Shown: one piece after another, positions 11,412-22,371 of the stretch | Layout: every line of letters starts with the position of its first letter | How positions within the stretch are numbered: position 1 is the stretch's first letter | Source of the DNA: Acidobacteriota bacterium | Lineage (GTDB): Bacteria > Acidobacteriota > JAAYUB01 | Length of the DNA: 37,264 bases | NCBI GenBank assembly: GCA_029565065.1 | Contig: JAKQOW010000069.1 | Location: 1 to 37,264, forward strand | Reading direction: 5' to 3' | Translations under genes and position numbers: made by a program | Notes under the pieces: generated by a model | Seen by the model: only the letters and a program-made list of their open reading frames with translations | The model's database searches: none | Told to the model about the DNA's origin: nothing

Positions 11412-13049
11412 ATGAAACACCGTGTCGCCATCCTGACCCTGATCATCCTGGCCGCCGGCGCGTCCGCCGCCTGGGGCTGCACCATCATCGGCGTGGGCAA
11501 GAAGGCTTCCGCCGACGGCTCCGTCATCGTCTCCCATACCGACTGCGGTCCCGACTCCCGCATCCGGGTGGTGCCGGCCCAGACCTTCGCCCCCGGCGAA
11601 AAGGCCCCGGTCTACTGGGGATTGCAGGATCCGGCCCAGCCGCTCGAGGCGCCCGCGGAAATTCTCGGCTACATCCCACAGGTGGAGAGGACCTACGCCT
11701 ACTTTCGTTCCGCCTATTCCCACATGAATGAACACCAGCTGGGCATCGCCGAAAGCACCACCAACCAGCGGCCGGAGCTGGCCAACGAAAAGGGGAAGTG
11801 CGAGCAGATCATGACCATCGAGCAGGCGCAAATATTCGCCCTGCAGCGCTGCCGCACCGCCCGCGAGGCGGTCCGCCTCATCGGCGAGCTGGTCACCGCC
11901 TACGGTTTCCTTTGCTCCAGCGGTGACGGCTCCGAGACCCTCTGCATCGGCGACCCCAACGAGGCCTGGGTCATGGAGGTGTTCGGCGTGGGGCCGGGCT
12001 GGAAGAAAGCCAGCGGGGCCCCCGGCGCCATCTGGGCCGCCCGGCGGCTCCCCGACGACCACGCCACCATGATCCCCAACTGGAGCATCCTCAAGGAGCT
12101 CCATCCCGAAGATTCCGAAAACTGCATGGTCTCGGCCAACTGGCAGCAGGCGGCCATCGACCGCGGCTGGTACGATCCGGCCGCCGGCCGGCCGTTTGTC
12201 TGGCAGGAGATTTACGCCCCCCTGCCCCAGGAGTTCGCCACCAGCCGCTTCTGGCTCTTCCACACCACCTTCGCCCCGGCGTATCGCGAGTGGCCCGACC
12301 GGAAACTCTCGGACGACCCGCTCAAGGGGATCAACCCGTACTACCAGTACGTGGAGCCCCTGTCCATCTACCCGTTCTCCGTCAAGCCCGAGCGGCCCGT
12401 TTCCGTCCGCGACGTGATCGCGTTCCAGCGCTCCGTGTTCGAGGGGACCATCTACGACCTCACCGCCGACCCGAACTGGCTGGTGCCCGACGGCAAGGGC
12501 GGCTACGTCAAGAGCCCACTGGCCACCCCGTTCCCGGGGAAGGACCTGCGGCTCCTGCTCAAGCTCACCAACCGCCGCCCCGTGGCCCGGCATCGCGGCC
12601 ACTACGGCATGGTCTGCCAGATGCGGAGCTGGCTCCCCGACCCGGTGGGCGGCGTCTACTGGGTCTACCTCGACAATCCCTACTTCAGCCCCTACGTTCC
12701 CTTCTACGCCGGCGTGACCGAAACCGCCGCCAGTTACCAGCTCTACGACCCCGAGCGCTTCTCCGAGGAATCGGCCCGCTGGGCCATTGACTTCGTGGAC
12801 AACCTGGCCGGCCTCCGGTTCCAGCCGGCTATCGAGGACGTCCGCGCTGTGCGCGACCCGTGGGAAGAAAAGATCTTCGCCCGCCAGGCCGAGGTGGAGG
12901 CCGAGGCGGTCCGGCTTCACGGCCAGGATCCGGCGGCGGCCCGGGAGTATTTGACCCGGTACTGCGTCGGGCTACAGGCGGAGGTCCCCCCCATGTTCCG
13001 GCAACTCCGGGAAACGATCATCACGAAGTACACGAACAACCGGGAATGA
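11412..13049 (+). CDS. Exported C69-family dipeptidase (N-terminal nucleophile hydrolase)
   Basis: 545 residues from ATG 11412 (AAGGAG about 9 nt upstream); the frame is open back to 11280 but that part is repeat-derived. Residues 1-22 are a signal peptide ending in AAWG, and the next residue is Cys23, followed by TIIGVGKKASADGSVIV. In peptidase family C69 (U34, PepD type) the mature enzyme begins with exactly this Cys, the nucleophile. Other family sequences are SHTDCGPDSRIRVVPA, GIAESTTNQR, a TREAVRLIGEL-like stretch (TAREAVRLIGELVTAYGF) and the GDPNEAWVMEV signature. It hydrolyses dipeptides, probably in the periplasm during peptide scavenging. Alternative substrates such as acyl-amino acids cannot be excluded. 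Confidence 0.88.
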   Translation: MKHRVAILTLIILAAGASAAWGCTIIGVGKKASADGSVIVSHTDCGPDSRIRVVPAQTFAPGEKAPVYWGLQDPAQPLEAPAEILGYIPQVERTYAYFRSAYSHMNEHQLGIAESTTNQRPELANEKGKCEQIMTIEQAQIFALQRCRTAREAVRLIGELVTAYGFLCSSGDGSETLCIGDPNEAWVMEVFGVGPGWKKASGAPGAIWAARRLPDDHATMIPNWSILKELHPEDSENCMVSANWQQAAIDRGWYDPAAGRPFVWQEIYAPLPQEFATSRFWLFHTTFAPAYREWPDRKLSDDPLKGINPYYQYVEPLSIYPFSVKPERPVSVRDVIAFQRSVFEGTIYDLTADPNWLVPDGKGGYVKSPLATPFPGKDLRLLLKLTNRRPVARHRGHYGMVCQMRSWLPDPVGGVYWVYLDNPYFSPYVPFYAGVTETAASYQLYDPERFSEESARWAIDFVDNLAGLRFQPAIEDVRAVRDPWEEKIFARQAEVEAEAVRLHGQDPAAAREYLTRYCVGLQAEVPPMFRQLRETIITKYTNNRE

Positions 13050-17114: not shown

Positions 17115-17149
17115 CGCAACGGACCACAGCCGCGCATCTATCCACGCGG

Positions 17150-17184
17150 CCGCACCGGTCACAAACCGGTGCGGCATATTTTTC
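17150..17184 (+). terminator. Rho-independent terminator
   Basis: A perfect 10-bp stem, CCGCACCGGT and ACCGGTGCGG, with a 5-nt loop CACAA is followed by CATATTTTTC. It lies 35 nt after the isochorismatase-family stop codon and isolates that gene from the repeat-protein operon. Confidence 0.85.
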
Positions 17185-17304: not shown

Positions 17305-18738
17305 ATGTCAATCGGTCCCCTGTCCGGTTTCATGCAGCTGTCAAATTTCGAGGCGCTGGCTTCCGGCCTGGACTCGGTCGCCCAGGGTGTCTCGGCCACG
17401 CTGGCCCAGACCGCCTCGGTTCCGCTGGACCAGATCATCCAGAGTTTCGCGCCGCCGGGACTGGTCCCGCCGGCAGGTCTTGCGACGGTGGCCGGCGCAG
17501 CCGAGTTCCCGTCGCCGGCCAATTTTCTCAGCGCCGTGGCTGGCGCATCACCCCATCTGGGCGCCGTGCGGGACATCCTGGCCGACCCGGGATTCGATCC
17601 GACGGCCGGGCTGGCCCAATCGCTGGGCGGCGTGTTCGACGGCGGACTGCTGAATCGCCTCATCGGCCAGGACGGATTGCTCAATCCGCTGCTGGGCGGG
17701 CTATCCCTGGTGACACCCGGCGCCGGTGATTTATCCGGTCAGGACGCGGTGGGTCGGCGCGCCATGCCCGGTGGGCTTGATGAAGTCGGTCGTCGCGGTA
17801 TCCCCGGCACGTTGGAAGAAGTCGGCCGCCGCACCCTGCCCGGCGGGCTCGACGAAGTGGGTCGCCGCGGCATCCCTGACACATTGGAAGAGGTGGGCCG
17901 CCGCACCCTGCCCGGCGGGCTCGACGAAGTGGGTCGCCGCGGCATCCCTGACACATTGGAAGAGGTGGGCCGCCGCACCCTGCCCGGCGGGCTCGACGAA
18001 GTGGGTCGTCGCGGTATCCCCGACACGTTGGAAGAAGTGGGCCGCCGCACCCTGCCCGGCGGGCTCGACGAGGTGGGCCGCCGCGGCATCCCCGACACGT
18101 TGGAAGAAGTGGGCCGCCGCACCCTGCCCGGCGGGCTCGACGAGGTGGGCCGCCGCGGCATCCCCGACGGTGCCGAGCAAGTCGGCCGGCGCGCCATGCC
18201 CGACGGCCTGGAAGAGGTGGGTCGGCGTACCGTTCCCGACGGGTTGGAGGAAGTGGGCCGGCGCACCCTGCCTGGCGGACTGGACGAGGTGGGCCGGCGC
18301 GCCATGCCCGACGGCCTGGAAGAGGTGGGTCGGCGTACCGTTCCCGACGGGTTGGAGGAAGTGGGCCGGCGCACCCTGCCGGGCGGACTGGACGAGGTGA
18401 GCCGGCGCGCCATGCCAGACGGACTGGACGAGGTGGGCCGGCGTACCCTGCCCGGCGGACTGGACGAGGTGGGCCGACGCGCCATGCCCGGAGATACTGG
18501 TGACTCATCCCCAGCCGAAATGATCGGTGATACCGGTTCACCATCGCTGTTAAGCGGGCTCGACGACACGCTTCGCGACGTGGCCGGACTGCGGGACATG
18601 CGGTCAGCTGAAGGGTTGGACACCCTGGGCCGCCTCCGGGAGCAACTCGGCACCCTGGATCGCATGGAGGCCGGAGTGCGCGATCTCTGCGGCCTGAAGC
18701 AGAGTCTTGACAGCAACCGCCTCGACGGCGGCAAGTAG
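17305..18738 (+). CDS. Unrecognised protein with 21 tandem 12-residue VGRR repeats; candidate substrate of the adjacent radical SAM enzyme
   Basis: 477 residues; GAGGAGG lies 6 nt before the ATG. No family is recognised. Residues 1-148 are Gly/Pro/Ala-rich and weakly hydrophobic (LDQIIQSFAPPGLVPPAGLA, LLNPLLGGLSLV), with no signal peptide and no NHLP or Nif11 leader signature. Residues 149-400 are 21 uninterrupted 12-residue repeats, consensus VGRR-x-x-P-x-G/T-L-D/E-E. Units such as VGRRTLPGGLDE and VGRRGIPDTLEE alternate strictly in the first half. Residues 401-477 are an acidic linker and a helical tail (RLREQLGTLDRMEAGVRDLCGLKQ) with the only Cys. The radical SAM gene begins 15 nt later without its own good ribosome site, which suggests coupled expression. 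It may be a multi-core RiPP precursor or a repetitive scaffold protein. Frame is certain; function is inference. Confidence 0.8.
   Translation: MSIGPLSGFMQLSNFEALASGLDSVAQGVSATLAQTASVPLDQIIQSFAPPGLVPPAGLATVAGAAEFPSPANFLSAVAGASPHLGAVRDILADPGFDPTAGLAQSLGGVFDGGLLNRLIGQDGLLNPLLGGLSLVTPGAGDLSGQDAVGRRAMPGGLDEVGRRGIPGTLEEVGRRTLPGGLDEVGRRGIPDTLEEVGRRTLPGGLDEVGRRGIPDTLEEVGRRTLPGGLDEVGRRGIPDTLEEVGRRTLPGGLDEVGRRGIPDTLEEVGRRTLPGGLDEVGRRGIPDGAEQVGRRAMPDGLEEVGRRTVPDGLEEVGRRTLPGGLDEVGRRAMPDGLEEVGRRTVPDGLEEVGRRTLPGGLDEVSRRAMPDGLDEVGRRTLPGGLDEVGRRAMPGDTGDSSPAEMIGDTGSPSLLSGLDDTLRDVAGLRDMRSAEGLDTLGRLREQLGTLDRMEAGVRDLCGLKQSLDSNRLDGGK
17749..18504 (+). repeat. In-frame 36-nt tandem repeat, 21 units
   Basis: 756 nt of 36-nt units without interruption. 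Higher-order units show recent expansion: the 72-nt blocks 17869-17940 and 17941-18012 differ at one base, and the 108-nt blocks 18193-18300 and 18301-18408 differ at two. The frame is kept throughout. Confidence 0.95.
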
Positions 18739-18753
18739 CGGGTCGTCCCGTCC

Positions 18754-20619
18754 ATGCCCCGGGTTGCCCTGGTTTGCATGCCGTGGGCCTCGGCTCGCCG
18801 TGGCTCTATCGCGTTGGGCGTTCTGAAGCGCACTCTGCGGCGGCACGGTATCGCCGCGGACACATACCACCTGAACGTCCGCCTGGCCGGACGGATGCAC
18901 CCCGGGCTGTATGAATCCATCTCCAACGTCACCCTGCTGGGTGACTGGCTGTTCTCCCAACACCTGTTCGGCGCGTTCGGTTCGGGTGAACTGGCCAACG
19001 ATCTCGGCCGGATCACCCGGGCCGAAGGCCGCGACATCCTGGCCATCCTCGACCAGTTGCCCATGGACACTGAGGCGATCGTCCGGGACATTCTGCCCCC
19101 GTTTCTGGACGCGTGTCTTTCCGAGATCCCGTGGGGGGATTACGACGTGGTGGGATTCACGTCGGTATTCGTCCAGCATGTCGCCAGTTTGCTGCTGGCC
19201 AAGCGGATCAAGGACCGCTGGCCCGGCGTCCGCATCGTCATGGGCGGCTCCAACCTGGCCGGACCCATGGGCCGGGAGAACCTGCGGGCGTTCGAGTGGC
19301 TCGATGCCGTCGTCGACGGCGAGGGGGACGAGGTCCTGCCGCAGCTGATCCGGCACTTGCGCCGCGGCGAGCCGATCCGCGGCCTGCCGGGCGTGTCGTA
19401 CCGCGATGCGGCGGGCCTCCATTTCGCCGCCGCTCCGACGCCCCTGGTCCCGCTCCGTGACGCGCCGGTCCCCGACTACGCCGAGTTTTTCGATGAGCTG
19501 CGGCGACAGGGGCTGCGCGACCGCATCCAGCCCCGGATTCTGTACGAAGGCGCCCGCGGCTGCTGGTGGGGCGAGAAGTCGCCCTGCACGTTCTGCAGCC
19601 AGAACGGCCAGGCCATGCCGTTCCGGGCGAAGCCGCCGCGGCGACTCCGGCGGGAGATGCGCGCCCAGGCCCGCCGCCACGACTGCCTGGACTTCGAGGC
19701 GGTGGACAACGTGCTGGATCCCCGCCAGCTCCGGGAGCTGATGCCCCGGCTGGGCAGGGACGACCTGGATTTCCGGTTGTTTTATGACATCCGTCCCACC
19801 CTGACCCGGCGCCAGGTGGCGCAGCTCCGCGCCGCCGGTGTCCGCGCCGTCGAGGCGGGCATCGAGAGCGTCCATGACGGCATGCTCCGCCTCATGGGCA
19901 AGGGGACTTCCGCGCTGCAGAACATCCAGTTGCTCAAGTGGTGCGCCGAGCAGGGCATCGCCGTGACCTGGCACCTACTGTTCGGCATCCCGGGGGAGCG
20001 GCCGGAATACTACCCCGAAACGCTGGCCGCGGCGCGGCTGCTCACCCATCTCCAGCCGCCCCTCAAGGCCGGCCGGGTGTTCCTGCAGCGTTTCAGCCCT
20101 TACTTCCAGGACCCGGCGCGCTGGGGTATCCGGGACGTCCGCCCCACGCCGCTGTACCGTTACGTCTACTCCCCCGACCGGGTCCGGTTGGCGGAACTGG
20201 CCTTCCACTTCGAGTGGGACTGGCCGGGGCGGCTCTCGGACCGGCGCGACCTGGCGGGTCCGTTGCAGGACCTGGTGGCGGACTGGCGGACGGCTTATCG
20301 TGACCGGCGGATCCAATTCCACTTCCGCCGCGGCCCGGGGATGGTGGAGCTGTGGGACAACCGCCCGCTGGCCGGTCCGTGGCGGATCGGCGAGCCGCGC
20401 CGCACCGTGTTGAAGGACCTGGCCGCCGTGGCTTGGGAAACCTGCATTGAAGCCCGGCCGCTCCGCGCGGTGGCGGCGGCCGCCACCGCCGCCGGCGTTC
20501 GTCCGGATTCGCCGGACGCCGTCCGGGCGGTCCTGGCGGAGCTGGTCCGCGACGGACTGATGCAGGAGTCGCGGGACAAGTACCTGTCTCTGGCGGTGCC
20601 GTGGAACCGCCCAATCTGA
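18754..20619 (+). CDS. Cobalamin-binding radical SAM protein, RiPP maturation C-methyltransferase family
   Basis: 621 residues. The N-terminal half is a B12-binding Rossmann domain (DYDVVGFTSVFVQHVASLL at 129-147, VRIVMGGSNLAG at 159-170, VVDGEGDEVLPQLI). The radical SAM domain starts at about 262 with YEGARGCWWGEKSPCTFC; the cluster cysteines are 270, 278 and 281, the CX7CX2C spacing that I recall for the family NCBI calls RiPP maturation radical SAM protein 1 (TIGR03975). Further family sequences follow: QNGQAMPFRAK, LDFEAVDNVLD, GIESVHDGMLRLMGKGTSALQNIQLLKWC, WHLLFGIPGE, and LQRFSPYFQDP. Such enzymes make Cob(III)-methyl and 5'-deoxyadenosyl radicals and are thought to methylate unactivated carbons of peptides. 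The only neighbour that could be a substrate is the repeat protein 15 nt upstream. Confidence 0.88.
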   Translation: MPRVALVCMPWASARRGSIALGVLKRTLRRHGIAADTYHLNVRLAGRMHPGLYESISNVTLLGDWLFSQHLFGAFGSGELANDLGRITRAEGRDILAILDQLPMDTEAIVRDILPPFLDACLSEIPWGDYDVVGFTSVFVQHVASLLLAKRIKDRWPGVRIVMGGSNLAGPMGRENLRAFEWLDAVVDGEGDEVLPQLIRHLRRGEPIRGLPGVSYRDAAGLHFAAAPTPLVPLRDAPVPDYAEFFDELRRQGLRDRIQPRILYEGARGCWWGEKSPCTFCSQNGQAMPFRAKPPRRLRREMRAQARRHDCLDFEAVDNVLDPRQLRELMPRLGRDDLDFRLFYDIRPTLTRRQVAQLRAAGVRAVEAGIESVHDGMLRLMGKGTSALQNIQLLKWCAEQGIAVTWHLLFGIPGERPEYYPETLAAARLLTHLQPPLKAGRVFLQRFSPYFQDPARWGIRDVRPTPLYRYVYSPDRVRLAELAFHFEWDWPGRLSDRRDLAGPLQDLVADWRTAYRDRRIQFHFRRGPGMVELWDNRPLAGPWRIGEPRRTVLKDLAAVAWETCIEARPLRAVAAAATAAGVRPDSPDAVRAVLAELVRDGLMQESRDKYLSLAVPWNRPI

Positions 20620-20645: not shown

Positions 20646-21191
20646 ATGCCCAAGAAAAAACGTCCGGACGTCGTCACCCAGCTGCTGAACGGCGATTTGA
20701 CGGCGGCCCAACTGGTGTCACTCGACGCCCGGCAGACCGCCGCGCTGCTCCATGCCGGCCATATCCTGTACACCGAGGGGCGCTGGCGGCAAGCGACGGA
20801 CATCTTCTCCGGCCTGGCGGTGCTGGACCCCCAGAATCCTTACGTGCACGGCATGCTGGGCGCCATCCGCCAGCAGGCGGGCGACCTGCCGGCCGCCGTC
20901 GCCCACTACACCCGCTGCCTGGAACTGGCCCCCGGCGATCCTGCCGCCTGGACCAACCGCGGTGAGATCCTGCTCCAAGCAGGTCGGCTGGAGGAGGCCG
21001 CACGGGACCTGGCCGAGGCGGTGGCGCGCGACCCCGAAGGCCGCCATCCCGCCGCCCATCGGGCCCGGCTGCTCGCCGCCCTGACCCAGGACGCCCTGCG
21101 GGCGGCGGCGAAAGGTGGACCGGCCGCAGCGGAAGAAGTCCTTCGCGCGCTCCAGGTCAGACTCGGCGCCCTGCGCGACGCGAAGGATTGA
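20646..21191 (+). CDS. TPR protein resembling SycD/LcrH-type chaperones
   Basis: 181 residues from ATG 20646 (GAGGAGG 5 nt upstream). The first 30 residues are basic and then Leu-rich. Three TPR-like helix pairs follow: AGHILYTEGRWRQATDIFSG, then VHGMLGAIRQQAGDLPAAVAHYTRC, then AAWTNRGEILLQAGRLEEAA. The order small-TPR, LDPQNPYVHGMLGAIRQQ, AWTNRGEILLQAG resembles the three-TPR class II type III secretion chaperones (CesD/SycD/LcrH), but no secretion gene is in the window, so general TPR adaptor is the safe name. It follows the radical SAM gene by 26 nt in the same operon and could present the repeat protein to the enzyme. Its last 35 nt overlap the convergent methyltransferase gene. Confidence 0.8.
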   Translation: MPKKKRPDVVTQLLNGDLTAAQLVSLDARQTAALLHAGHILYTEGRWRQATDIFSGLAVLDPQNPYVHGMLGAIRQQAGDLPAAVAHYTRCLELAPGDPAAWTNRGEILLQAGRLEEAARDLAEAVARDPEGRHPAAHRARLLAALTQDALRAAAKGGPAAAEEVLRALQVRLGALRDAKD

Positions 21192-22371
21192 CTGGCGGTC
21201 GACGGACTCGCCCGCTGTGGCTGCACGAACCCGCCGCCGTGTTCGCGGCGACGGATTTGTGCAGATTGAAGTAGCGGAAATGGCGACCCAGCACGTTTGT
21301 GCCGGGAAGGCCCACATCCAAACCGGCCGTCCGCAGGCAGCCGGCGAGCGTCTCCGGTGCCATGGCCGTGTCGATCCGCAGATCCCCGCCCAAAGCTTCC
21401 CGCAGGCGGGCAATCCGCCCGCCCCAATCCACCACCGGGTCGTTGAACAGATCCCAGGCCCGGCGGTCGTCCGGCGACATCACCCGGGAGGCAAGCCAGA
21501 GCCCCAGGTGACGAGGCGAAACGATGGTGAATATCCGGCCGGGGTGAAGAAAATCGGCGACATCGCCCACGCTGCACGCGAAGCCCAGCCGGTCGAGCAC
21601 CTGCACCAGATGTCGTTCGCCGATGGAATATTCCCGGTGGTCCGGCAGCTCCAACGGCCGGGCGAACGGGGTGACGTTCTCCACCAGGAAGGCGCCGCCT
21701 CCCGGCGGGAGCACCTTCCACAGGGCTTCCACGAACCGGATGGCCCCCCAGTTCACCGCGAACGACGGTGCTTCCGCCTCGTCCGGCACGTCGAGGCCGT
21801 ACCGGTCGACGAGGTCCCAGGCCAGTGCCCAGTAGCGCCGGTGGCGGAAGTCGTCCGGCGAGAATCCCCCCGTAGGCGGGCCGCCCCGCGTGCGGGGCAC
21901 ACCGTCGATGGTCCGAAAATCACCGATGACCTCATTGGACAATACAAAATCGGCTTCGATGCTCGTTCGGTGCAGCCGTTCGGCGTCACCAGACACGAGG
22001 CGCACCGGCGTCCGCGCGTCGCGCAGCCGCTCCCGCTGGGCGGCCTGCAGCTCGGGCGATAGGTCCAGGATGGCGTATTCGGCCAGGCGGCTCGCCCCCG
22101 CCAGCACCGGTACGATCCCGGCGGCCACATCACCGAGCCCACCGCCCACCTCCAGCACGACGGCGGGCCGGTCCGCCGGCAGCAGCTCCTGCTCCAGAAT
22201 GAAGTGCCCCAGCGCCTCGCCGTAGGTCCAGCCGTTCCGCACGAACGGGCCGGGTTGCCGGAGCAGGTGCGACAGGCTCACCTCGTCGAGCATGGTGGCG
22301 CGCTTCTCTTGCCGGTGAAACCGGCGGTTGTCGGTGCACGGATCTGAGGAAAGATTGGATGGGCGGGCCAT
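21157..22371 (-). CDS. SAM-dependent methyltransferase, MidA/NDUFAF7-like
   Basis: 404 residues from ATG 22371 (GGGAGGGG just upstream); a later ATG at 22293 is possible. After an N-terminal region with NGWTYGEALGHFILEQEL, motif I is VVLEVGGGLGDVAAG (71-85), followed by YAILDLSPELQAAQRERL and VLSNEVIGDF. The pattern SPEL-x-A-x-QRERL plus a NE(V/L)-x-D motif is that of Methyltransf_28, whose MidA/NDUFAF7 members dimethylate a protein arginine. The C-terminal half, about 180 residues, is not typical, and the last 35 residues are basic and low in complexity, overlapping the TPR gene. Target unknown; it is convergent with, not part of, the repeat-protein operon. Confidence 0.65.
   Translation of the reverse strand: MARPSNLSSDPCTDNRRFHRQEKRATMLDEVSLSHLLRQPGPFVRNGWTYGEALGHFILEQELLPADRPAVVLEVGGGLGDVAAGIVPVLAGASRLAEYAILDLSPELQAAQRERLRDARTPVRLVSGDAERLHRTSIEADFVLSNEVIGDFRTIDGVPRTRGGPPTGGFSPDDFRHRRYWALAWDLVDRYGLDVPDEAEAPSFAVNWGAIRFVEALWKVLPPGGGAFLVENVTPFARPLELPDHREYSIGERHLVQVLDRLGFACSVGDVADFLHPGRIFTIVSPRHLGLWLASRVMSPDDRRAWDLFNDPVVDWGGRIARLREALGGDLRIDTAMAPETLAGCLRTAGLDVGLPGTNVLGRHFRYFNLHKSVAANTAAGSCSHSGRVRRPPVNPSRRAGRRV

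What the first reader, a model, noticed from the sequence alone, without database searches (positions are those of the whole stretch)
17305..20619. A 21-repeat protein directly upstream of a RiPP-type cobalamin radical SAM enzyme: candidate new peptide-modification system
Seen: a 477-residue protein with 21 perfect-length 12-residue repeats (VGRR-x2-P-x2-L-x-E) is followed after 15 nt by a B12/radical SAM protein with the CWWGxKxxCTFC signature. Known: that signature belongs to the RiPP maturation radical SAM family (TIGR03975 by recall), whose usual partners carry NHLP or Nif11 leaders. Neither leader is here. Inference: the repeat protein could be a multi-core precursor or a repetitive scaffold methylated many times, for example at the Val, Pro or Leu of each unit. 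No protease or exporter is in the window, which leaves room for a non-RiPP role.
Basis: partly seen in the sequence, partly recalled or inferred. Interest (0 to 1): 0.92.

Follow-up and report, generated by a model that had tools for sequence, protein, structure and literature searches.

The report
Radical-SAM-modified repeat proteins with secretion chaperones
Side by side in an uncultured acidobacterial genome sit genes for a protein carrying 21 twelve-residue repeats, for a radical enzyme of a peptide-methylating family and for a protein resembling type III secretion chaperones; the enzyme is predicted to methylate the repeats and the chaperone would hand the protein to a type III export machine, a link between protein tailoring and export for which our limited literature searches listed no precedent.

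Summary
In detail: 21 exact 12-residue units (residues 149-400 of 477), then after 15 nt a radical SAM enzyme scoring 608 bits against TIGR03975 (cut-off 282). The genome carries a non-flagellar-type T3SS locus with relatives of this TPR, and the repeat protein's ends belong to a small family encoded beside such TPR genes. The cassette occurs a second time with an unrelated repeat (8 x 21 residues); a third TIGR03975 gene follows yet another repeat protein. Two related genomes hold a different radical SAM (SPASM) beside another client-TPR pair. The units are under purifying selection. Best reading: a radical SAM C-methyltransferase tailors the repeats of proteins destined for the T3SS, their ends serving as chaperone and recognition domains instead of a RiPP leader. 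Modification, target residue and export are inferred; none was shown. Relatives of the ends occur without the enzyme, so a plain RiPP reading is only partly supported.

The parts
17149..17175 (+). terminator-like hairpin (11 pairs, 9 G-C) after the upstream isochorismatase-type gene; would set the cassette apart
   Evidence: 3 sites found against a mean of 2.3 in shuffles, so the count is no evidence; this stem is the longest of the 3; sequence
17305..18738 (+). repeat protein, 477 aa: N-part 1-148, 21 units of 12 residues 149-400, C-part to the end
   Evidence: family of the ends; SD-like GAGGAGG before the start
17749..18504 (+). the array of 21 x 36 bp, VGRR-x-x-P-x-x-L-x-E
18754..20619 (+). 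radical SAM enzyme of TIGR03975 (RiPP maturation radical SAM C-methyltransferase), Cx7Cx2C at C270/C278/C281
20646..21191 (+). TPR protein, 181 aa, SycD/LcrH-like (best NCBIfam model TIGR02552, 67.7 bits, cut-off 104.8; that scan used the longer start 20601)
   Evidence: GAGGAGG before the start

Best explanation
The three genes form a cassette in which the radical SAM enzyme is predicted to C-methylate each 12-residue unit of the repeat protein, and the SycD-like TPR protein would hold that protein by its conserved ends for export by the genome's likely type III secretion apparatus. Shown: the three genes, their order and spacing, the exact array, selection on the units, TIGR03975 membership, kinship of the protein's ends with proteins encoded beside SycD-like TPR genes, a second copy of the cassette with a different repeat, and a T3SS locus in the same genome. 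Inferred: that the enzyme acts on the repeats (the repeats differ wholly between the two paralogous cassettes while enzyme, TPR and ends are kept, so the ends are the likely recognition parts and the array the target); that the chemistry is B12-dependent C-methylation; that the target is the valine of each unit (PoyC, which has the same Cx7Cx2C motif, methylates Val and Ile; the arginines are the main alternative, with Mmp10 as precedent); that the T3SS exports the protein, to the periplasm or the surface. A tailored, Arg-, Gly- and Pro-rich, probably disordered stretch of 5 to 21 units would then be displayed.
For: (1) Gaps of 15 and 26 nt. (2) Enzyme: 608.2 bits against TIGR03975, cut-off 281.85. 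(3) TPR: TIGR02552 is its best NCBIfam model; blastp with the TPR encoded beside SctV gives 70 to 82 bits; it aligns along nearly all of solved SycD (E 1.3e-5). (4) T3SS locus G000:C160: SctV 855.6 bits against 692.25; SctN, SctQ and SctR over their cut-offs, SctJ just under. Part of the same locus is in G001 and G002, ended there by contig ends. (5) Ends: a profile of six G030 proteins and P0002, with no window-type row, finds the window protein at E 6e-8 among 4926 ORFs, with only family members at E up to 1; profile-profile probability 96.2%. The G030 protein C238 was found by similarity to the window protein and only then seen to lie beside a SycD-like TPR gene. (6) Second cassette, G000:C93: repeat protein, enzyme 49% identical to the window's, TPR; its PYV motif recurs 8 times at exactly 21 residues; the two enzymes fall in one clade, SH-aLRT 99. 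(7) A third TIGR03975 gene, C123, also follows a repeat protein, in G000 and G001. (8) A radical SAM/SPASM gene precedes another client-TPR pair in G001:C74 and G003:C160. (9) Family of the ends in 4 of 396 genomes, SctV over cut-off in 15 of 396, 2 genomes in both; hypergeometric 0.0077.
Against: No modification, secretion or binding was observed. The TPR scores below the TIGR02552 cut-off (67.7 against 104.8), and designed and other TPR proteins outscore SycD in the PDB. The repeat protein is not detectably a needle, rod or translocator (comparison of three profiles of the family with the genome's needle-like protein: 5.5, 0.1 and 1.4%; no PDB match for A3). SctV and SctU were not found in G001 and G002; the broken locus is a likely reason but the missing part was not seen. 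13 of the 15 genomes with SctV over cut-off, G003 of the same family among them, gave no family member (one search scored at most 5 candidates a genome). Three of the four family genomes are one genus, so the 0.0077 overstates. The SctN of the locus scores a little higher against a flagellar FliI model (652.1 against 642.9, both over cut-off), SctT falls below both its models, and FliO- and FliK-like genes are present. I noticed no secretin in the locus. G030-type and C93-type ends compare at only 6.2% directly. The C123 repeat protein has no TPR gene beside it and no detected kinship to the family. Among other TIGR03975 loci, one (L037) has a strongly repetitive protein upstream with no such TPR. 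AlphaFold models are poor (mean pLDDT 40.0 and 54.0). The B12 domain scores below Pfam's cut-off in the window enzyme (20.5 against 32.1).
Confidence: 0.48

Rival explanations
1. A conventional multi-core RiPP: the N-part is an unusual leader, each 12-residue unit is a core, and a protease elsewhere would release modified peptides.
For: The TIGR03975 model is named for RiPP maturation; some other TIGR03975 loci in the phylum have short precursor-like neighbours, judged by eye (L040 of G030, L029 of G075, L032 of G073); unit number varies from 5 to 21.
Against: No NHLP/Nif11 leader; a conserved helical C-part follows the array; relatives with the same ends have no enzyme beside them and sometimes no repeats; no dedicated protease or exporter recognised among 34 window ORFs scanned. 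Near C93, read by eye only, an ABC transporter operon of import look starts about 0.9 kb upstream of the repeat gene, so an ABC route is not excluded there.
Confidence: 0.17
2. The repeat protein is an unmodified spacer, ruler or filament part of the T3SS, and the radical SAM enzyme acts on something else.
For: Repeat number varies between strains, as expected of a spacer; AlphaFold gives the array no structure; two G030 relatives carry other repeats with no enzyme seen beside them (one runs off its contig).
Against: The enzyme gene lies between client and TPR gene in both paralogous cassettes; another radical SAM type has joined another such pair; the T3SS locus has its own SctP/FliK-like protein (PF02120 over cut-off).
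Confidence: 0.14
3. The TPR protein is a general scaffold for the enzyme and its substrate, with no tie to type III secretion; the modified protein stays inside or leaves by another route.
For: Below the SycD cut-off; other TPR proteins match better in the PDB; only 2 of 4 family genomes show SctV over cut-off, and 13 of 15 genomes with it lack the family.
Against: Its relatives include two TPR genes of the T3SS locus itself; T3SS DNA is present in all three genomes of the genus; family proteins without an enzyme still have the TPR neighbour.
Confidence: 0.16

Closest known systems
PoyC/PoyB-type B12 radical SAM C-methyltransferases (polytheonamide, a proteusin RiPP); NCBIfam TIGR03975
   Same: Same Cx7Cx2C motif as PoyC (PoyC's motif and its Val/Ile methylation from passages of PMC11285071); the window enzyme is a TIGR03975 member. 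That PoyC itself belongs to TIGR03975 is recalled, not tested.
   Different: No proteusin-type leader model matches; conserved parts lie on both sides of an array, and a SycD-like TPR gene follows.
Class II type III secretion chaperones and their clients (SycD/LcrH with YopB/YopD; pairing recalled)
   Same: Small TPR protein encoded beside its presumed client; relatives in the T3SS locus.
   Different: Below the family cut-off; the client is no translocator by the sequence tests made; a radical SAM gene lies between client and TPR gene.
Protein C-methylation by Mmp10 on methyl-coenzyme M reductase
   Same: A B12-dependent radical SAM enzyme that methylates a residue (Arg285) of a large protein (passages of PMC8828468).
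   Different: A single arginine there; here 21 repeated, probably disordered units, and another radical SAM subfamily.
Secretin-less 'Myxo' non-flagellar T3SS
   Same: Core T3SS genes with no secretin seen in the locus; of the Myxo systems the survey says that they may translocate proteins or make a periplasmic or extracellular structure (passages of PMC3459982).
   Different: Here in Acidobacteriota, where that 2012 survey reports flagella but no non-flagellar T3SS; with a needle-like protein and candidate clients. A secretin elsewhere in the genome was not sought, nor was the phylogeny of the system.

Membership tests
TIGR03975 RiPP maturation radical SAM C-methyltransferase | score over the curated cut-off along the whole model | tested here: met
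   608.2 bits against 281.85, model 1-606 of 606
TIGR03975 RiPP maturation radical SAM C-methyltransferase | three cluster Cys, Cx7Cx2C | tested here: met
   C270, C278, C281; Cys in 61 of 61 aligned rows; the C123 pair has a longer first spacing
TIGR03975 RiPP maturation radical SAM C-methyltransferase | B12-binding domain | tested here: inconclusive
   PF02310 20.5 bits in the window enzyme, cut-off 32.1; 30.7 in C93 and 35.7 in C123
TIGR03975 RiPP maturation radical SAM C-methyltransferase | C-methyltransferase activity on a ribosomal peptide | not testable with these tools
   experiment needed
RiPP precursor (NHLP or Nif11 leader) | recognised leader family | tested here: not met
   no such model in Pfam or NCBIfam for the repeat protein
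RiPP precursor (NHLP or Nif11 leader) | cleavage of a core from a leader | not testable with these tools
   needs protein from the host
SycD/LcrH T3SS chaperone (TIGR02552) | score over the curated cut-off | tested here: not met
   67.7 against 104.8; hence called SycD-like only. The two TPRs of the T3SS locus are below it too, 73.6 and 56.3
SycD/LcrH T3SS chaperone (TIGR02552) | alignment along solved SycD | tested here: met
   residues 19-145 to 9-138 of 148, E 1.3e-5; weaker than to many other TPR proteins
SycD/LcrH T3SS chaperone (TIGR02552) | binds a client and delivers it to the T3SS | not testable with these tools
   experiment needed
T3SS needle (SctF, PF09392) | kinship of the repeat protein's ends with the needle-like protein of the T3SS locus | tested here: not met
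   profile comparison 5.5, 0.1 and 1.4%
Non-flagellar T3SS (genome) | SctV, SctN, SctQ, SctR over family cut-offs in one locus | tested here: met
   SctN also passes a FliI model with a slightly higher score, and FliO/FliK-like genes are present
Non-flagellar T3SS (genome) | secretin SctC | tested here: inconclusive
   none noticed by eye in gene calls of 40 kb; no family search was made for it

The most novel reading that the evidence does not exclude
A new kind of system: type III secretion clients that are tailored before export by radical SAM enzymes, in which conserved chaperone/secretion domains take the place of a RiPP leader and an exchangeable repeat array takes the place of the core. 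Two unrelated radical SAM types have been recruited to it, and it would display many C-methylated sites per molecule outside the cytoplasm of a sludge-dwelling acidobacterium.
Probability: 0.38. Interest if true: 0.92.

Novelty: new variant of a known kind. Interest (0 to 1): 0.77.

Why it matters
Radical SAM C-methyltransferases are known from small peptides and from single residues of a few large enzymes. A cassette that couples one to a repeat protein and a type III chaperone would join two fields that our literature listings show apart (listings only), would give candidate clients to T3SS of a phylum in which their role is, to my knowledge, open, and would supply protein substrates with about twenty near-identical sites, convenient for studying how such enzymes move along a chain. 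The pairing is directly testable with two or three genes in laboratory E. coli.

Tried and rejected
Needle/rod identity of the repeat protein: not supported by profile comparison or PDB search. A viral relative: none in viral contigs at the sensitivity of one scan. NCBIfam hit 'ribonuclease P' on the repeats: 26 residues, 34.7 bits against a cut-off of 240, read as a composition artefact. Matches of the repeats in G007, G022 and G035 (E 7e-8, 7e-4, 4e-8; 23-24% identity; frames of about 700 codons, two of three with a stop): read as composition matches and not followed up. A shared motif G-R-[RK]-x-hydrophobic-P in the window and C93 repeats (in 2 of 97 gene calls; 134 of 20000 shuffles of C93 carry it): chosen after looking and absent from C123, so not used as evidence. 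Structure: both AlphaFold jobs were poor; only a C-terminal helix pair of the window protein stands out (419-427 and 435-470; block means 85-86 over 421-450, falling to 68 by 470); I ran no fold search. A named-genome scan with the enzyme gave 30 loci: two of G002's MAG, 26 actinobacterial, one Elusimicrobia, one Planctomycetota; among the 28 others the TPR profile found nothing. My repeat screen upstream of the enzyme also flagged six other loci: L037 strongly (14-residue units), L033, L038, L048, L074 and L076 weakly; only L037's repeat was looked at. Unknown: whether G002 has the C123 cassette (not found); whether the genome has a secretin.
Full report
What is there. The window encodes, on the plus strand, a 477-residue protein (17305-18738), a 621-residue radical SAM protein (18754-20619) and a 181-residue TPR protein (20646-21191), with gaps of 15 and 26 nt. 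Upstream lies an isochorismatase-type gene 190 nt away with a terminator-like hairpin between; downstream a convergent methyltransferase-like gene overlaps the TPR gene's end by 35 nt. GAGGAGG precedes the first and the third gene; the enzyme's start has no clear one, so coupling to the repeat gene is likely. The genome is acidobacterial by kinship: G002 of the same genus shares its contig C81 with the record JAGOHA010000113.1, 'Acidobacteria bacterium isolate Go_SlDig_bin_198' (same length, 10734 bases, and same 453-residue repeat protein), and G003 of the same family holds a protein filed under 'Acidobacteria bacterium'.

The array. Residues 149-400 are 21 units of exactly 12 residues. Twelve proteins of this type are in hand (window, G001, G002 and nine database proteins): they carry 5 to 21 units. 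With the last, degenerate unit of each left out, 123 of 135 units remain: RR in 123, V in 121, G in 121, P in 119, L in 116, E in 116. The window's array has 42 Arg and no Lys. Within G000, G001 and G002 the units differ much more at synonymous than at nonsynonymous sites (pN/pS 0.168/0.457, 0.107/0.414, 0.133/0.481). Against simulated neutral change from the consensus unit, 0 of 1000 runs were as conserved. The constant residues are therefore selected.

The enzyme. It scores 608.2 bits against TIGR03975, cut-off 281.85. Its Cx7Cx2C Cys are conserved in 61 of 61 aligned rows. A review says that PoyC has a Cx7Cx2C motif and methylates Ile3 and Val 5, 10 and 21 in polytheonamide biosynthesis (passages of PMC11285071). 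No solved structure is close: 3 matches, over about 75 residues.

The third gene. TIGR02552, the SycD/LcrH chaperone model, is the best NCBIfam match of the TPR protein, below its cut-off. A search of six genomes with the TPR protein encoded beside SctV found 28 matches at E up to 1e-12: 6 in G000 (the window's among them), 4 each in G001, G002 and G003, 1 in G004, 9 in G030.

The secretion system. G000:C160 holds SctV (855.6 bits, cut-off 692.25); SctN, SctQ (with FHA-like hits) and SctR over their cut-offs, SctJ just under, SctT and a FliJ/SctO-like protein below theirs. SctN scores slightly higher against a flagellar FliI model. FliO- and FliK-type Pfam models are met by two further genes. 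SctS and SctU were named by eye. The locus has two SycD-like TPR genes (73.6 and 56.3 bits) and a 217-residue protein whose C-terminus resembles the needle family (PF09392, E 2.5e-4, 21.6 bits, cut-off 29.4). SctV and SctU were not found in G001 and G002, but a DNA search shows a left part of the locus in both, at 95 and 98% identity: in G001 the match ends at base 11,512 of an 11,513-base contig, in G002 it fills a whole 5,328-base contig. So the genus has the locus and these assemblies break in it. I noticed no secretin in 40 kb of gene calls and did not look elsewhere. A 2012 survey found non-flagellar T3SS only in Chlamydiae, Proteobacteria and Verrucomicrobia, and described secretin-less 'Myxo' systems of unknown role (passages of PMC3459982).

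The family of the ends. The window protein's N- and C-parts are related to proteins of genome G030 of the same phylum. The first, C238 (225 aa, no repeats), came from a search with the window protein (E 4e-4) and turned out to lie beside a SycD-like TPR gene. The others were found through their TPR neighbours, so their adjacency is by construction: C119, C150 and C325 without repeats, C221 with 13-residue repeats, C108 with other repeats and cut by its contig's end. A profile of these six and P0002, without any window-type row, finds the window protein at E 6e-8 among 4926 ORFs; the C93 type comes at 0.016 to 0.057 and nothing unrelated appears at E up to 1. Profile-profile comparison gives 96.2% with the window type and 95.0% between window type and C93 type, but 6.2% between G030 type and C93 type directly. 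The genome's needle-like protein is not related by this test (0.1 to 5.5%). Across 396 genomes of the phylum the family was found in 4 (G000, G001, G002, G030, at most 5 candidates a genome scored) and SctV over cut-off in 15; 2 genomes are in both (hypergeometric 0.0077), and 13 genomes with SctV over cut-off have no member found. Three of the four are one genus. This is weak support.

Paralogous cassettes. G000:C93 repeats the order repeat protein, enzyme, TPR. The enzymes are 49% identical and form one clade with the window's (SH-aLRT 99, quick tree of 62 rows). The C93 repeat protein has PYV[RK][EQ][LV] eight times at exactly 21 residues. The cassette is in G000, G001 and G002 (in G001 the repeat gene is split over contigs C66 and C149). 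Ends, enzyme and TPR are thus kept while the array differs, which suggests that the ends are recognised and the array is the target. In G002 the window-type contig ends inside the enzyme gene; another contig begins in the end of such a gene, followed by the TPR gene. A third TIGR03975 gene, C123 (282 bits, just over cut-off), lies far off in the tree and follows a third kind of repeat protein in G000 and G001, without a TPR gene in the stretches seen. I scanned 58 loci of TIGR03975 relatives with the TPR profile (28 with 1.5 kb on each side, 30 with up to 8 kb; four are of this genus, two of them the same place): it rings in three of these four, and weakly (36.9 bits) in one long frame of L028.

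A second radical SAM type. In G001:C74 and G003:C160 a radical SAM/SPASM gene (PF04055 and PF13186 over cut-off; nearest NCBIfam model the nif11-class maturase 3, far below cut-off) precedes a 206-208-residue protein with three YG[VIL] motifs, then a TPR gene whose TIGR02552 score is low (33.2 bits for G003, behind general TPR models) but which was found with the T3SS TPR as query (layout). The enzymes are 59% identical; the gene was found in 2 of 13 genomes searched, not in G000. Besides G003's own record, two further database proteins keep the YG motifs. That two radical SAM types sit with client-TPR pairs suggests that tailoring of such clients is a theme and not an accident.

Mechanism, and what is inferred. 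I commit to C-methylation of the valine of each unit by the radical SAM enzyme, with the ends bound by the TPR protein and the whole protein exported by the T3SS. Valine is chosen by analogy with PoyC and because a Val recurs in both arrays; Arg is the main alternative (Mmp10 methylates Arg285 of methyl-coenzyme M reductase, passages of PMC8828468). Neither modification nor export has been observed. AlphaFold leaves the array without structure and is poor overall.

Novelty. Searches of the held open-access library for radical SAM with type III secretion, SycD with radical SAM, and RiPP precursors with T3SS listed no paper whose title or abstract describes such a pairing (listings only; one search found no paper at all). 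Most subscription papers are not held, so this is limited. The parts are of known kinds; the combination is a new variant at least, and a new kind of system if the inference holds.

Noticed in passing
G001:C74 (L138 4748-6880) and G003:C160 (L139 4543-6724): Radical SAM/SPASM gene, 206-208-residue protein with three YG[VIL] motifs, TPR gene: a second, unrelated radical SAM type in a client-chaperone-like gene run.
   Followed up: partly
G000:C123 (L022 1605-5995) and G001:C52 (L167 1017-5113): A divergent TIGR03975 enzyme (longer first Cys spacing) after a repeat protein (QIKHKLQLGDE-type units, fewer in G001) and a CxxCxxCC (PF03692) protein; no TPR gene seen.
   Followed up: partly
G030 contigs C108, C119, C150, C221, C238, C325, C368: One genome with nine SycD-like TPR matches, six of them beside clients of one family; two clients carry their own tandem repeats (C108, C221) with no radical SAM gene seen beside them.
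   Followed up: partly
G000:C160:7165-20673 (L019/L020): Acidobacterial non-flagellar-type T3SS locus with no secretin noticed, with FliO- and FliK-type genes and a SctQ with FHA-like N-terminal hits.
   Followed up: partly
window 21157-22371 (-): Methyltransferase-like protein (PF02636 26.5 bits, cut-off 23.3) converging on the TPR gene with a 35-nt overlap; the same neighbour in G001 and G002, none read at the C93 cassette.
   Followed up: no
L037 (G196:C6) upstream of a TIGR03975 gene: 159-residue protein of 14-residue DPKYDPKQA-type repeats about 1 kb upstream of a TIGR03975 enzyme, with an unannotated 320-residue protein between.
   Followed up: no
L029 (G075:C37) upstream of a TIGR03975 gene: 134-residue Cys-rich precursor-like protein with QQPC repeats.
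   Followed up: no
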